This document shows positions 5,867 to 37,601 of a stretch of 64,000 bases of DNA, piece after piece. How positions within the stretch are numbered: position 1 is the stretch's first letter; the number at the start of each line of letters is the position of its first letter. The position numbers and the translations under genes are program-made. Source of the stretch: Cloeon dipterum (Eukaryota > Arthropoda > Insecta > Ephemeroptera > Baetidae); the NCBI RefSeq assembly GCF_949628265.1, contig NC_088787.1:7120501-7184500 (forward strand), written 5' to 3'. The notes beneath the pieces were generated by a model. It saw only the letters and a program-made list of their open reading frames with translations. It was not told where the DNA came from and did no database searches.

Positions 5867-6628
5867 ATGACTCGGGTCGGCCTCCTGGTCTGCTCCGTTT
5901 GCCTGTATGTGATTGTGGCCTCTATCACCTGCACTGAAGGCTCTCAAACAGGGACTGCAGACGAAAAATCCAGCCGTGGAAAACCACTAAATGGGATTAG
6001 TAATGACGTCCTTGCCAAACTGAACTCGGATCAGGACTTGCAAAAGTTTTGGCAGGATGCCTTTAAAACCGGATTAACATTAGATTCAAATCTAGAAGAA
6101 TTAGCTGAATTCTCTAAAAATGAATCAAAGTCCTATCCTGTGCTGTTGACGAGATTGAAAAATATAGCCAAAAAATTGGGTTCGGGCCCTTTTATCGTGA
6201 AGCTCTGGGAATTTATAAATAGTACCAACACGTCATATACTGCATCGCTACTACCTTTGGAAAAAGAATGGCGCTCCAATCCGGCATTGGCGCGGAAATT
6301 GATAGATATTGTAAGCAAAGCGATGGAAACTGATCCCGATTTGGACAAAGTGTGGAAGAATGCCGCGGAGAAAGGTTTAAGCGAAAACTCTACTACGGAA
6401 GAATGGAAACAGTTTTTGACCGACGCAACGGAATCTAATGAAGCCGTGGAAGCGAAACTGAATGAATTTTTCGAAAAATCGATGCGTTCTGTACAATCCG
6501 TACTCATGGTATACGCCGCCTTTGGTGATGATCTCAAGACAAACGGAGCATACCAGCCGACCATTTTTATTGCACCTTTTACTGGGGCAATGCTGCTGCA
6601 GTATTGTTACAAGATCTATTTCTTTTGA
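5867..6628 (+). CDS. Array family member A: secreted three-repeat protein with GPI-like tail
   Basis: 253 residues, no intron in the coding part. The start is fixed by conservation: every member has a splice acceptor (TTTTGCTCCACAG, here ending at 5852), then 14-15 bases, then ATG. A signal peptide spans about residues 1-23, followed by a short Ser-rich linker. Three related ~50-residue segments follow, starting near SDQDLQKFW, about 50 residues later (GSGPFIVKLW), and at TDPDLDKVW. The repeat shape is [ST]D-x-x-L-x3-W ... E-E-x3-F ... SNPAL-x-x-KL, predicted helical. A TNGA turn and a ~24-residue hydrophobic end with no charged residue after it look like a GPI-anchor signal. N-x-S/T sites are common (e.g. 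NSTNTS). The family is not recognised and its function unknown. An intact frame across eight diverged copies argues that it is a real gene. Confidence 0.8.
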   Translation: MTRVGLLVCSVCLYVIVASITCTEGSQTGTADEKSSRGKPLNGISNDVLAKLNSDQDLQKFWQDAFKTGLTLDSNLEELAEFSKNESKSYPVLLTRLKNIAKKLGSGPFIVKLWEFINSTNTSYTASLLPLEKEWRSNPALARKLIDIVSKAMETDPDLDKVWKNAAEKGLSENSTTEEWKQFLTDATESNEAVEAKLNEFFEKSMRSVQSVLMVYAAFGDDLKTNGAYQPTIFIAPFTGAMLLQYCYKIYFF

Positions 6629-7064
6629 ATATGCATAATTTTTAATATACGTACATCTATAGTGACGACAACTTATTATAGAGAAATGAAATGCTTTTAT
6701 TTTTCCTTCTGCCAACTTATTAACTCGATATTGCATGGCTATCAAAATAATCTGCTTTTAAGAATTCACAGGTGTAACGGTAGGTTTACCCTGACTGAAA
6801 TATTACTGTAACATAATTGAATGTATCGATTTGGTGGCGTTCAGGGTGCAATATTGTGTGGTAGAGAGTTAACAGTCGAGGAGAGACAGAGAAAGAGACA
6901 AGATTTTTTGAAGACGGACAAGCGGCGCAAGCAGTCGAGCCCGCAATCTCTCTCTCCCCTCTCGCAGCCCTGAGCAGCCAACGTGTAGCAAAAAGGCACC
7001 CAATAAACATAAATTATTTTGACGTTTTTATTTATTTTTTTTATCAATATACCCCTAATAATTT
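6629..7064 (+). other. Gene A 3' flank with conserved downstream block
   Basis: From about 6765 it carries a ~250-bp block that also follows C (about 16645-16895), E (about 23495-23745) and F (about 29155-29400). The block starts AGGTGTAACGGTAGGTTTAC, then a segment with ATCGAT, and a part reading GCGGCGCAAGCAG. An AATAAA lies at 7002-7007. No gene seen. Confidence 0.5.
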
Positions 7065-7800
7065 CTTGTGGTTGCTGATCATTGCTAAAAATAAAAAAAT
7101 AACATTGTCACTCTTTCCTTGTCAAGACCCAGATAGGTTTCGTTTCTTTTTGCATGTTTTGCAGAGATAACTCTGCCAACTTGCTCCGTTTTCCGGTCCA
7201 TTTCTTCCTTATCATACGCATGATAAGTGCACTGCGGCACTAGACTTTTGTTCCTTGCACAATCATGTGACTTCGCGCCTTGCTTCTAAAAGCTCTGCTG
7301 TTGCAAAGTTGAGGTTGGTATTACAGATTTTGACTACACCGTTTTTTTTAAGTATAGAGCTTTTTAATATTTTAATTTTTAAACGAGGCCAAACATCTTT
7401 CCATTTTCTAATTTTCTACTAACGATCCAGGAATTTTATTGAATTGAAATAGTGGAAATTTTCCTAGAAGCTTGACGTCTTTTAGTACGCTTTCATTTTA
7501 TCAAAAATAAATTTAATAATTTCTCACACGACACAAACCACAAACTAATCACATCATAAGCTGGAGTTACAAATTCTAAAGCTCCCTCCGTGATTTTTCA
7601 CATTGATCTGTATTGCGCAAGAGAATGCCATTTTTGTGGCAAGTGCGAATAAAATCCAAAAATTATTTTCAACTATTTGAAAATTTATTTTTTTTTATTT
7701 TAGAAAACGTCAGTAATCGCATTTACCTTTTGAATCACATGATTTCTAATTAGAGTTATCAGTTTTATCCGTTAAATTTTTTCCAAAAAGTTTAATTAAA
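7065..7800 (+). repeat. Orphan upstream module of the array unit, without a coding exon
   Basis: Aligns with the region upstream of gene A: TTGTGGTTGCTG near 7068 as near 4580, the GTTGCAAAG block near 7310, and AAAACGTCAGTAATCGCATT near 7702. It breaks off near 7800, before the splice acceptor and coding exon, and runs into the 5S cluster flank. It is a truncated duplicate unit. Confidence 0.65.
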
Positions 7801-7975
7801 ATAAAACATTTTAAGAAATGTCAATAATACTGTTGTGGTTTCTGTATTTAAAATAAACCACAGGAAGTGGCTTAAAATATATTTAAAAAAATCAATATTA
7901 ATTACGAGAAGCAGGATAATGGATCTAAAAGTGAAGCAAAAGAGATGGAATTAATGGAAAAAAGCAAAATACGGG

Positions 7976-8094
7976 CGCCTACAACATGCAGTGTTCCCAG
8001 GCGGTCACCCATCCAAGTACTGACTGCACTCAACGTTGCTTAACTTCGGTGATCGGACGAGAACCGGTGTTTTCAACGTGATGTGGTCGTAGGC
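7976..8094 (-). rRNA. 5S ribosomal RNA (cluster 1, copy 1)
   Basis: On the minus strand it begins GCCTACGACCACATCACGTT and ends ...GTTGTAGGCG, with the conserved interior GTTCTCGTCCGATCACCGAA and the GGATGGGTGACCGCCTGGGA 3' half that make up the internal Pol III control region. A T-rich run (TTTTGCTTTTTT) follows as terminator. It is divergent from the copy at 8308. Confidence 0.93.
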
Positions 8095-35535: not shown

Positions 35536-36044
35536 AAAACTGGTCAATTAAGAGTTCTTTATATTATGTGCAATAAACCGCATGAAACTGGTAAAAAAAC
35601 GCCAAAAACAACTGCAATGCAAGTTTGGGAAAATCCCTGGAAGATTCCCAACGCTAATACAGATGCCGAACATCAAAGGTTTTATAGGAAACCTCGACTA
35701 CAAAATAACAATTTTTGCATTGCTACAATTCCCAATAAAAGAAAATGCAAAAAACCGGTAAGAATCGGGAAACAAAAGTTGGGAATGGGAACTCCCGGGA
35801 AAAAAACTTATCTAGATCACCGAGAAATTTAAATTGGCCCCTTGCTATTGAATTTGGTAGGAGGAAAAGCCTTGCGGAGGTGGGAATCCCAAGGAGACAA
35901 TTTTGTTATCGGAGAACGCATTATTCCATACCAAAAACCGAGATAAACCAAGTTTCTGTTTTGCTTGTTTGACAGAGAAAACCGCAGATTCTCCAGTTTC
36001 CAGCGGTCATCCTGCTCAAACCATGATATTTAAGGCAGGCGCTT

Positions 36045-36145
36045 GAATCTAGACTTTTATTCGTTCTACAATCTTGCGACTCGCCTAACTTCTATATAAG
36101 ATCTCTGTTGAAAAGAAAGGTTGGTTTTACAGACTTTGACTCTAC
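36045..36145 (+). promoter_or_regulatory. Conserved upstream block of gene H with TATA-like box
   Basis: CTAGACTTTTATTCGTTCTA, TATATAAG at 36093-36100, then ATCTCTGTTGAAAAGAAAGG and TTGG. The most promoter-like of the shared blocks. Confidence 0.45.
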
Positions 36146-36908
36146 ATTTGTTATTTAAGCAGTGCATTTAAATATTTTACAAGACCAAAGATATTTTTAA
36201 TTTTCTAGTTTTGCTACCGGTGAATCTTAACGATGTCCTTTATTTATTCAAATTGAATAATGTCGTAATAATATTCCTCGTAGCTTGACGTCTTTCATTT
36301 TTACATAAATAAATTTGAATTTACTCACACTTTTCATGAGGAAAACATACTCACGCAATGCAAACAAAAGTAAAGAAATTATACATTTTCTGGACATATT
36401 ATCAAGCTGGAATCAAGTTAAATTTTTAAAGTGTCTGCTTCAACGCCAGCACTTATTTTTACTTTATTTTGCCAAGGTGACAATTAAAGGTCTGTCCGCA
36501 TGAGAATGCCATTTGTAGCAATAATTGCGAATAAAATAATTATTTATAAACATTTTCAAATTAGTTATTAATTAGGATGAGTTGTTAATCGCATTACTTT
36601 TTGAATTACATGAATTCAAAAAAGGGTTTGTCCTTGGCCAGTTTTTTTCGAAGAAATAAAAAAACTGTAAGAAATGTCCGTGTTTTCCACATAGGAAGTA
36701 ATTTCTGTGATTTTTGCTCGTGATCTTGGAAAATTGCTGAATATACCAAGCAATTTGTTTTAGTAAGGATGAAAAAATAATTTATTTTTTGAATTATTAA
36801 AAAAAATCATTCACTGGCCACAGTCTTCTTGTCGATTTTTGGCCCTTTACCCAAACCCTGCGCGTCTAACCTTTATTTTTCTTCTGCTCGACAGCATTTT
36901 CTGTCGAT

Positions 36909-37601
36909 ATGACTCGGCTCTGCCTCCTTGTCTTCTCCGTTGGCCTGTATGCGGCCTCTTTCACTTGCACTGAAGCCGCTACTGCACGCCCTCAAAAAGG
37001 GACTGATGAAAAATCCAGCCGTGGAGAACCGCTGAACGGGATTAGTAATGACGTCCTTGCCAAATTGAACTCGGATCAGGACTTGGAAAGGTTTTGGCAG
37101 AATGTCTCTAGCAGTGAATTAGATTTAGAACCAGGTCTAAAAAATTTCGCTGAATTCGCTAAAAATGTTTTGAAGTCCTATCCTGCTCTACTGAAGAGAT
37201 TGAAAAATATAGCTAAAATATTGAGCTCGGACCCTTTCTTCGTGAAGGCGGTGGAAATTTTTATCAAGGAAGAGGAATCAACCAGCCCGCCCAAATCGCA
37301 AACTGATCTAGAATTATTTCTAGAAAAAGAATTGCGCTCAAATCCAGCCTTAGCACGAAAATTGAAGGATATTATAAGCAAAGCGATGGAAACTGATCGT
37401 GATTTGGAACAGGTGCTGAAGAATCCCGCGTTTAAAGGGTTACGCGAAAACTTTAGTATGCAGAAATGGAAAAAAATTTTGGACGACGCAATTCAATCCA
37501 ATCCTACCGAGGCAATGAAACTTTATAAATTTGTAGAAAATTCGCTGCTTTCTGTACAATCCGTGGTCATCGTGTATGCCGCCTTTGGTAAAGATCTCTA
37601 G
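36909..37601 (+). CDS. Array family member H: three-repeat protein lacking the anchor-like tail
   Basis: 230 residues. The acceptor (CTGCTCGACAG) ends at 36894. Signal peptide 1-22; repeats start at SDQDLERFW, SDPFFVKAV and TDRDLEQVL. The frame stops after AAFGKDL because the Lys codon found there in sisters (CTCAAG) reads CTCTAG. The DNA after it still resembles the tail sequence but with length changes. The upstream region is well kept, so a soluble secreted product is plausible; early decay is the alternative. It is the last member of the array; no further copy is seen to the right. Confidence 0.72.
   Translation: MTRLCLLVFSVGLYAASFTCTEAATARPQKGTDEKSSRGEPLNGISNDVLAKLNSDQDLERFWQNVSSSELDLEPGLKNFAEFAKNVLKSYPALLKRLKNIAKILSSDPFFVKAVEIFIKEEESTSPPKSQTDLELFLEKELRSNPALARKLKDIISKAMETDRDLEQVLKNPAFKGLRENFSMQKWKKILDDAIQSNPTEAMKLYKFVENSLLSVQSVVIVYAAFGKDL

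What the first reader, a model, noticed from the sequence alone, without database searches (positions are those of the whole stretch)
5867..37601. Eight-gene tandem family of secreted proteins built from three ~50-residue repeats
I do not recognise this family. Each protein has a signal peptide and three internal repeats that begin [ST]D-x-x-L/F and end in a Leu/Lys-rich helix (e.g. RLKNIAKIL, KLKDIVSEA, KLNKFVSNS). Copies differ strongly, yet every frame from signal peptide through repeat 3 is open. That implies selection on a secreted or surface product. It could be a lineage-specific immune, mating or glandular family.
Basis: partly seen in the sequence, partly recalled or inferred. Interest (0 to 1): 0.75.

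Follow-up and report, generated by a model that had tools for sequence, protein, structure and literature searches.

The report
Fast-evolving insect secreted-protein gene array
Eight neighbouring insect genes appear to make small exported proteins built from three similar helical blocks, and their differences bear the mark of natural selection favouring change, as expected of molecules locked in a contest with a changing partner.

Summary
Eight + strand frames (g1-g8, 5867-37601) encode 230-331 aa proteins with a signal-peptide-like leader and three related helical repeats. The host is an arthropod, probably a winged insect, unnamed. Genome searches with two of the proteins and with leader DNA return only these eight places. 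Pfam, PDB, Foldseek and viral/prokaryote scans give no relative; eukaryote protein databases were not available. AlphaFold2 predicts a confident all-helical core (pLDDT 88.5). C-termini differ: GPI-signal-like tail (g1, g2, g4, g5), none (g3, g8), transmembrane-like plus repeat-derived (g6, g7). Best reading: secreted and cell-surface binding proteins in an evolutionary conflict, immune or reproductive. Expression was not testable.

The parts
5867..6628 (+). g1, 253 aa: leader, 3 helical repeats, hydrophobic C-terminal tail (most hydrophobic at 6560-6616)
10852..11601 (+). g2, 249 aa, same layout; reference for the AlphaFold2 models
15096..15815 (+). g3, 239 aa, stops (TAA) before the hydrophobic tail: predicted soluble
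18535..19323 (+). g4, 262 aa, divergent copy with hydrophobic tail
21791..22537 (+). g5, 248 aa, with hydrophobic tail
26464..27459 (+). g6, 331 aa, transmembrane-like segment (27181-27237) then mostly repeat-derived C-terminus
32866..33861 (+). g7, 331 aa, segmental duplicate of g6 (85% aa identity over 269 aa), same C-terminal design
36909..37601 (+). g8, 230 aa, stops (TAG) before the tail: predicted soluble, though its last helix is itself hydrophobic (19-residue mean 1.48)
37627..37671 (+). remnant of the hydrophobic tail after the g8 stop
   Evidence: tblastn, 15 aa, E 0.009 (g2) and 0.003 (g5)
10951..11508 (+). mature three-repeat domain of g2 (186 aa); R1 = g2 residues 35-95, R2 = 96-149, R3 = 150-204
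   Evidence: AlphaFold2 pLDDT 88.5, pTM 0.82; repeat homology
14985..15095 (+). conserved region before the ATG, given for g3. In all 8 copies: branchpoint-like TCTAAC, pyrimidine-rich tract and an acceptor-like site (CACAG in 7, GACAG in g8) 14 bp before the ATG. In part of them: TTTAAATA (g3, g4, g6, g7) and ACAGTC (g2, g3, g4, g5, g8)
   Evidence: a genome search with this region plus the first 70 coding bases finds only the 8 copies
27225..27428 (.). foldback repeat element (54-nt arms, 85% complementary) supplying most of the C-terminus of g6; identical copy in g7
   Evidence: 83 match rows on C1-C6, both strands counted

Best explanation
The array is a set of eight working, tandemly duplicated genes for secreted or cell-surface alpha-helical binding proteins. 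A conserved promoter-proximal region and leader send each protein into the secretory pathway. The mature part folds as three tandem three-helix repeats with very few cysteines. The C-terminus decides its fate: a GPI-like tail (g1, g2, g4, g5) or a transmembrane-like segment (g6, g7) keeps it on the cell, and loss of the tail (g3, g8) releases it. The repeats, repeat 3 most of all, are driven to change because they contact a partner that keeps changing. Shown: open frames, repeat homology, codon pattern, C-terminal differences, confinement to one locus as far as the searches reach. Inferred: secretion, anchoring, fold (predicted), binding role. I think an immune role (recognising or trapping a parasite or microbial product, with soluble forms as decoys) the likeliest single role, at about 0.35; reproductive or glandular conflict follows at about 0.3. 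The confidence below is for the general statement, not the immune role.
For: Eight of 8 frames open against 0 of 2000 neutral simulations. M1a vs M2a 2dlnL 43.65; M8 vs M8a lnL -3733.23 vs -3755.32. In 60 null simulations the statistic reached at most 5.17 on one tree, and at most 21.11 in 60 with a separate tree per region, the control for gene conversion. It stays at 28.3-49.6 in all 8 single-gene removals. R3 alone: omega 2.29, 2dlnL 12.01; omega 2.04-2.68 and 2dlnL 7.27-13.41 over 8 removals. Leader conserved: signal-peptide mean ratio 0.62; the 105 alignment columns before the ATG differ by JC 0.18 on average against 0.76 for the rest of the 160 bp examined. Confident helical model. Tails.
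Against: No expression data. The selection statistic falls to 23.1 without g6 and g7 and to 11.0 without g4, g6 and g7, so part of it comes from that branch. Three nodes of the tree used have bootstrap support of only 54-73. R1 and R2 alone do not differ from omega 1 under a single-omega model. The youngest pair, g6/g7, shows no excess of change in the repeats over the flanks (39 of 513 vs 105 of 1601 sites, Fisher P 0.42), and R3 there differs less (7 of 165) than R1 (22 of 186). Posterior support for selection is no higher on polar than on hydrophobic helix faces (0.403 vs 0.408, P 0.82), which does not favour a purely surface contact. No GPI predictor was available; the tails are only weakly hydrophobic (19-residue means 1.12-1.74), no more than a helix at the end of the supposedly soluble g8 (1.48).
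Confidence: 0.6

Rival explanations
1. Reproductive or glandular secretions: seminal, egg-coat, salivary or similar proteins diversified by sexual conflict or by contact with a host or prey.
For: A conserved leader with a diversifying mature part in a tandem cluster is the published pattern of Hessian fly salivary SSSGP genes (PMC2955719: abstract and section 6 read). Seminal proteins are likewise said to evolve often under positive selection (PMC2486302, listing and abstract start only).
Against: GPI-like or transmembrane-like C-termini in 6 of 8 copies would be unusual for a purely secreted gland product. No tissue data.
Confidence: 0.3
2. Carrier of a hydrophobic ligand: a helical-repeat lipid carrier working like the Bla g 1 / G12 insect allergen family, its pocket changing with diet or habitat.
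For: All-helical repeats. Candidate selected sites include hydrophobic positions (g2 W52, A103, W104, L120, M163 among 21 sites with posterior above 0.9), and selection is no stronger on polar faces.
Against: No PF06757 match in any of 8. Profile comparison with this genome's own best PF06757 protein gives P 0.33. No PDB fold match at E <= 0.001. No cavity was measured, as model coordinates were not at hand.
Confidence: 0.15
3. Decaying family: a tandem array of relaxed or pseudogene copies, dN/dS near 1 meaning drift.
For: Pairwise omega mean 1.06. g3 and g8 lack the tail, and g6 and g7 lack the stop that g1, g2, g4 and g5 use.
Against: 0 of 2000 neutral simulations keep all eight frames. A constrained codon class of omega 0.13 beside one of 2.9. 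Conserved DNA before the ATG.
Confidence: 0.05
4. Gene conversion among tandem copies, a wrong tree or alignment error produce a false selection signal in otherwise ordinary constrained genes.
For: Regional trees differ somewhat and several nodes are weak. g6 and g7 share 235 identical bases at their ends where flank divergence predicts P 1.2e-7, which looks like conversion. Separate regional trees alone push the null statistic to 21.11.
Against: The observed 43.65 exceeds all 60 simulations of that null. R3 on its own tree still gives omega 2.29. The NG86 R3 mean ratio of 2.02 needs no tree.
Confidence: 0.1

Closest known systems
Hessian fly SSSGP salivary genes (Chen et al. 2010, PMC2955719)
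   Same: Tandem cluster (seven SSSGP-1 genes in 15 kb there), conserved promoter and signal peptide, diversified mature region, dN/dS above 1 in the listed pairs and a lower ratio in the signal peptide (abstract and section 6).
   Different: Here the mature cores still align (43-78% identity to g2) and share one predicted helical-repeat fold; no intron was seen inside the coding part; C-termini are of three kinds. No sequence comparison with SSSGPs was made.
Insect allergen repeat family PF06757 (Bla g 1 / G12)
   Same: Insect proteins made of repeated amphipathic helices (Bla g 1: 12 helices round a large hydrophobic cavity; PMC6893020, abstract start only).
   Different: No sequence or profile match; the unit here is ~55 aa with three helices.
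Insect odorant-binding proteins (PF01395)
   Same: Small secreted helical proteins often in tandem arrays (recalled).
   Different: Conserved cysteines define OBPs (recalled); the core here has 0-2 cysteines and no PF01395 match.

Membership tests
Insect allergen repeat PF06757 (Bla g 1 / G12) | Match to the Pfam profile above its cut-off | tested here: not met
   0 of 8 whole proteins and 0 of 8 cores list PF06757; profile P 0.33 vs L025
Insect allergen repeat PF06757 (Bla g 1 / G12) | Helical shell enclosing a large hydrophobic cavity | tested here: inconclusive
   All-helical model; Foldseek vs PDB found nothing at E <= 0.001, only the best 50 rows of 174 and 169 were shown; cavity not measured
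Odorant-binding protein PF01395 | Conserved disulfide cysteines (recalled) | tested here: not met
   0-2 Cys in each mature core
SSSGP-type conserved-leader, diversifying-mature secreted families | Tandem cluster | tested here: met
   Eight copies in 31.7 kb, same strand
SSSGP-type conserved-leader, diversifying-mature secreted families | Promoter and signal peptide more conserved than the mature part | tested here: met
   only the ~105 bp next to the ATG are conserved
SSSGP-type conserved-leader, diversifying-mature secreted families | Positive selection on the mature part | tested here: met
SSSGP-type conserved-leader, diversifying-mature secreted families | Conserved intron and 3'-UTR | tested here: inconclusive
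   Acceptor-like site before every ATG but no donor common to all copies; 3' flanks not visibly conserved except g6/g7 (output partly cut), though one search found 5 short 3'-flank-like pieces
SSSGP-type conserved-leader, diversifying-mature secreted families | Salivary expression | not testable with these tools
   no RNA data
GPI-anchored proteins | Hydrophobic C-terminal signal after a small-residue site | tested here: inconclusive
   Tail ending within 0-6 residues of the C-terminus after T/A-N-G-A in g1, g2, g4, g5, weakly hydrophobic; no GPI predictor

The most novel reading that the evidence does not exclude
A previously undescribed, lineage-restricted animal recognition family: a cysteine-poor triple three-helix-repeat fold with no structural relative, diversified by positive selection, and issued in soluble, GPI-anchored and transmembrane forms, the last created by reading through a lost stop into a foldback transposable element.
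Probability: 0.3. Interest if true: 0.75.

Novelty: new variant of a known kind. Interest (0 to 1): 0.52.

Why it matters
It gives a compact, testable case of a secreted gene family confined, as far as the searches reach, to one locus, with a predicted fold, named candidate sites under diversifying selection, and a natural series of apparently anchored and released forms. It also shows that a family-average dN/dS near 1 can hide strong selection in both directions, so such families should not be dismissed on the average.

Tried and rejected
Known domain: Pfam, NCBIfam on 3 of 8, PDB sequences: only chance-level rows. Viral or bacterial origin: viral contigs and genome-contig scans matched 87 and 43 stretches by pattern, none confirmed; BFVD Foldseek best E 0.15. 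Known fold: PDB Foldseek best E 0.89 and 0.78. More copies: two protein queries and one leader-DNA query find no other place; a coding-DNA query finds the eight plus 5 short pieces like the DNA after the g1 stop; tblastn in the masked window and 2 x 10 kb of flank gave only the g8 tail remnant. PF06757 kinship: rejected. Surface-only selection: not supported. A g6/g7 excess in the repeats over flanks: not found.

Naming the host: 94 Chitin_bind_4 matches say arthropod, 5 partial 7tm_6 matches, two of them with stops inside, suggest a winged insect. No exact TTAGG or TTAGGC run of 25 or 24 bases. Five large contigs: C1-C3 measured, C4 and C5 inferred from the total. I considered the mayfly Cloeon dipterum (its five chromosomes are recalled). 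Its published odorant-binding expansion (PMC7250882, passages) does not fit the single PF01395 match here, though split exons can hide matches, so the species is left open. Passages of PMC11491810 did not help. Papers on genomes with five pseudomolecules (30 of 2,909, 8 of 8 and 5 of 5 rows listed) showed no 190.1 Mb insect; the nearest sizes seen were two flies of 193.17 and 196.60 Mb, not followed up.
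Full report
What is there. The window is G000:C2:7120501-7184500 of a 190 Mb, 10-contig genome. Ninety-four Chitin_bind_4 matches mark an arthropod and five partial 7tm_6 odorant-receptor matches over the cut-off suggest a winged insect; the species is not established. Eight + strand open frames lie at 5867-6628, 10852-11601, 15096-15815, 18535-19323, 21791-22537, 26464-27459, 32866-33861 and 36909-37601. They share MTR/MSR leader peptides, an IS[ND]D-x-LA-x-LNS block and three repeats. Protein searches of the whole genome with g2 (E <= 1) and g7 (E <= 10) each return exactly these eight places, and a search with the leader-proximal DNA of g3 also returns only the eight. 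The tool notes that its counts are lower bounds.

Repeats and fold. AlphaFold2 on the whole of g2 gave mean pLDDT 67.3 and pTM 0.70, with residues 1-27 and 220-249 below 50. On the trimmed domain (186 aa, eight rows) it gave pLDDT 88.5 and pTM 0.82 with ten helices, the first short, the other nine forming three per repeat. The unit is: helix A after an [ST]-D-x-x-[LF] turn; helix B, with E/K/D-W-x-x-F/L in R1 and R3 of most copies but not in R2; helix C after an S-Y-P or [ST/N]-N-x turn, with a conserved K-L (or similar) pair. The core holds 0-2 cysteines, so the fold does not rest on conserved disulfides.

No known relative. In the Pfam scan of whole proteins no row reaches its cut-off; over the eight cores the best E is 0.022. 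NCBIfam gives none for the 3 tested, PDB sequences two rows at E 2.9, Foldseek against PDB best E 0.89 and 0.78 and against BFVD best E 0.15, viral and prokaryote contigs none confirmed. Eukaryote protein databases and AlphaFold DB were not available, so I cannot say that relatives do not exist in related insects.

Selection. NG86 ratios over codons 1-219 range from 0.50 to 1.43 in 28 pairs, mean 1.06; by region the mean ratio is 0.62 in the signal peptide, 1.30 in the linker, 0.78 in R1, 0.93 in R2, 2.02 in R3 and 1.63 in the 15 codons after it (pairs with infinite or zero dS left out of a region's mean ratio: 27 of 28 used for the signal peptide, 18 of 28 for the linker, 28 of 28 for the others). 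Two tests say otherwise. First, neutral evolution of the g2 core along the same tree (length 1.25 substitutions per site) leaves a mean of 42 stops among eight copies, at best two copies intact, and none of 2000 runs keeps all eight open; observed stops are zero. In 60 simulations under M1a the statistic reached at most 5.17; in 60 with a different tree for each region, at most 21.11; observed 43.65. Dropping any one gene leaves 28.3-49.6, dropping g6 and g7 23.1, dropping g4, g6 and g7 11.0, dropping R3 30.4. R3 alone has omega 2.29 on its own tree, 2.04-2.68 over eight removals; R1 and R2 alone do not differ from 1. The code is my own, not PAML, and three nodes of the main tree have support of only 54-73.

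Against this: the recent duplicates g6 and g7 show no excess in the repeats over the flanks (39 of 513 vs 105 of 1601, P 0.42), and between them R3 has changed less than R1 (7 of 165 vs 22 of 186). Selected codons are not concentrated on polar helix faces. Selection may act on buried or ligand-facing positions as well as exposed ones.

Leader and expression signals. About 105 bp before each ATG are conserved (mean JC 0.18), while the rest of the 160 bp examined is not (0.76). All eight copies have TCTAAC plus a pyrimidine-rich tract ending in CACAG (GACAG in g8) 14 bp before the ATG. Four have a TTTAAATA stretch (g3, g4, g6, g7) and five an ACAGTC element (g2, g3, g4, g5, g8), about 30 bp apart where both occur (g3, g4). 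The block may be a TATA/initiator promoter, a splice acceptor of an upstream non-coding exon, or a trans-splice acceptor; no donor common to all copies was identified, so this is open. AATAAA or ATTAAA lies within 400 bp of the stop in 7 of 8 (such hexamers are common by chance in AT-rich DNA).

Three C-termini. g1, g2, g4 and g5 end in a hydrophobic stretch after T/A-N-G-A, 0-6 residues from the end (19-residue hydropathy 1.12-1.74), as a GPI signal would, though weak; the last helix of g8 reaches 1.48 by the same measure, so hydropathy alone does not prove the point. g3 and g8 stop earlier, and a tail remnant follows the g8 stop. In g6 and g7 the stop position of g1, g2, g4 and g5 is a sense codon; the tail has become a strong transmembrane-like segment (2.69, 3.01) and runs on for 73-74 residues, mostly encoded by a palindromic element with 54-nt arms. 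That element has many dispersed copies on C1-C6 (83 match rows, both strands of many copies counted, 40 of 103 candidates scored). The stretch 27225-27459 is identical in g6 and g7 (0 of 235 differ; P 1.2e-7 at the flank rate), which suggests gene conversion or constraint.

Interpretation. Shown: eight intact, diversifying genes of one family at one locus. Inferred: export, anchoring, fold, and a role in binding a changing partner. The nearest published pattern I saw is the Hessian fly SSSGP cluster, with conserved promoter and leader, diversified mature part and dN/dS above 1 (PMC2955719, abstract and section 6 read). This array works like that pattern but is not shown to be a member; its mature parts still align, and the host and tissue are unknown. 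Anchored next to released forms of one binding domain fits immune recognition with decoys slightly better than a pure gland product, hence my order of 0.35 and 0.3.

Is it in print?

Noticed in passing
window 7976-8902 and 12558-13481: Six 5S rRNA genes in two triplets with the same -,+,- order, sitting between g1 and g2 and between g2 and g3; the triplets look duplicated together with the array (repeats D7 and D11).
   Followed up: partly
window 23400-34850: Segmental duplication of about 5 kb carrying g6 and g7, 92-95% identical in its aligned pieces; 235 bp at the gene ends are 100% identical.
   Followed up: yes
window 27225-27428 and copy in g7: Dispersed foldback element of about 200 bp, matches on C1-C6, captured as coding sequence in two genes.
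   Followed up: yes
window 2259-3698, - strand: Two open frames with a cysteine-rich pattern (C...C...G..Y.WC) that looks by eye like a fibronectin type II-like secreted protein (recalled); no Pfam match at E 1.
   Followed up: partly
window 40044-44824, + strand: Exons of what looks like a 1,4-alpha-glucan branching enzyme: CBM_48 (E 6.5e-4, below its cut-off) and Alpha-amylase_C (E 6.1e-20); the enzyme name is inferred.
   Followed up: partly
window 55279-55996, + strand: Frame fragments that look by eye like the end of a LINE reverse transcriptase (recalled); no supporting Pfam match for the first fragment, the second was not tested.
   Followed up: no
L021 (G000:C10:1-10000): This 89.5 kb contig begins with 51% GC DNA against 35-40% in the window; origin not examined.
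   Followed up: no
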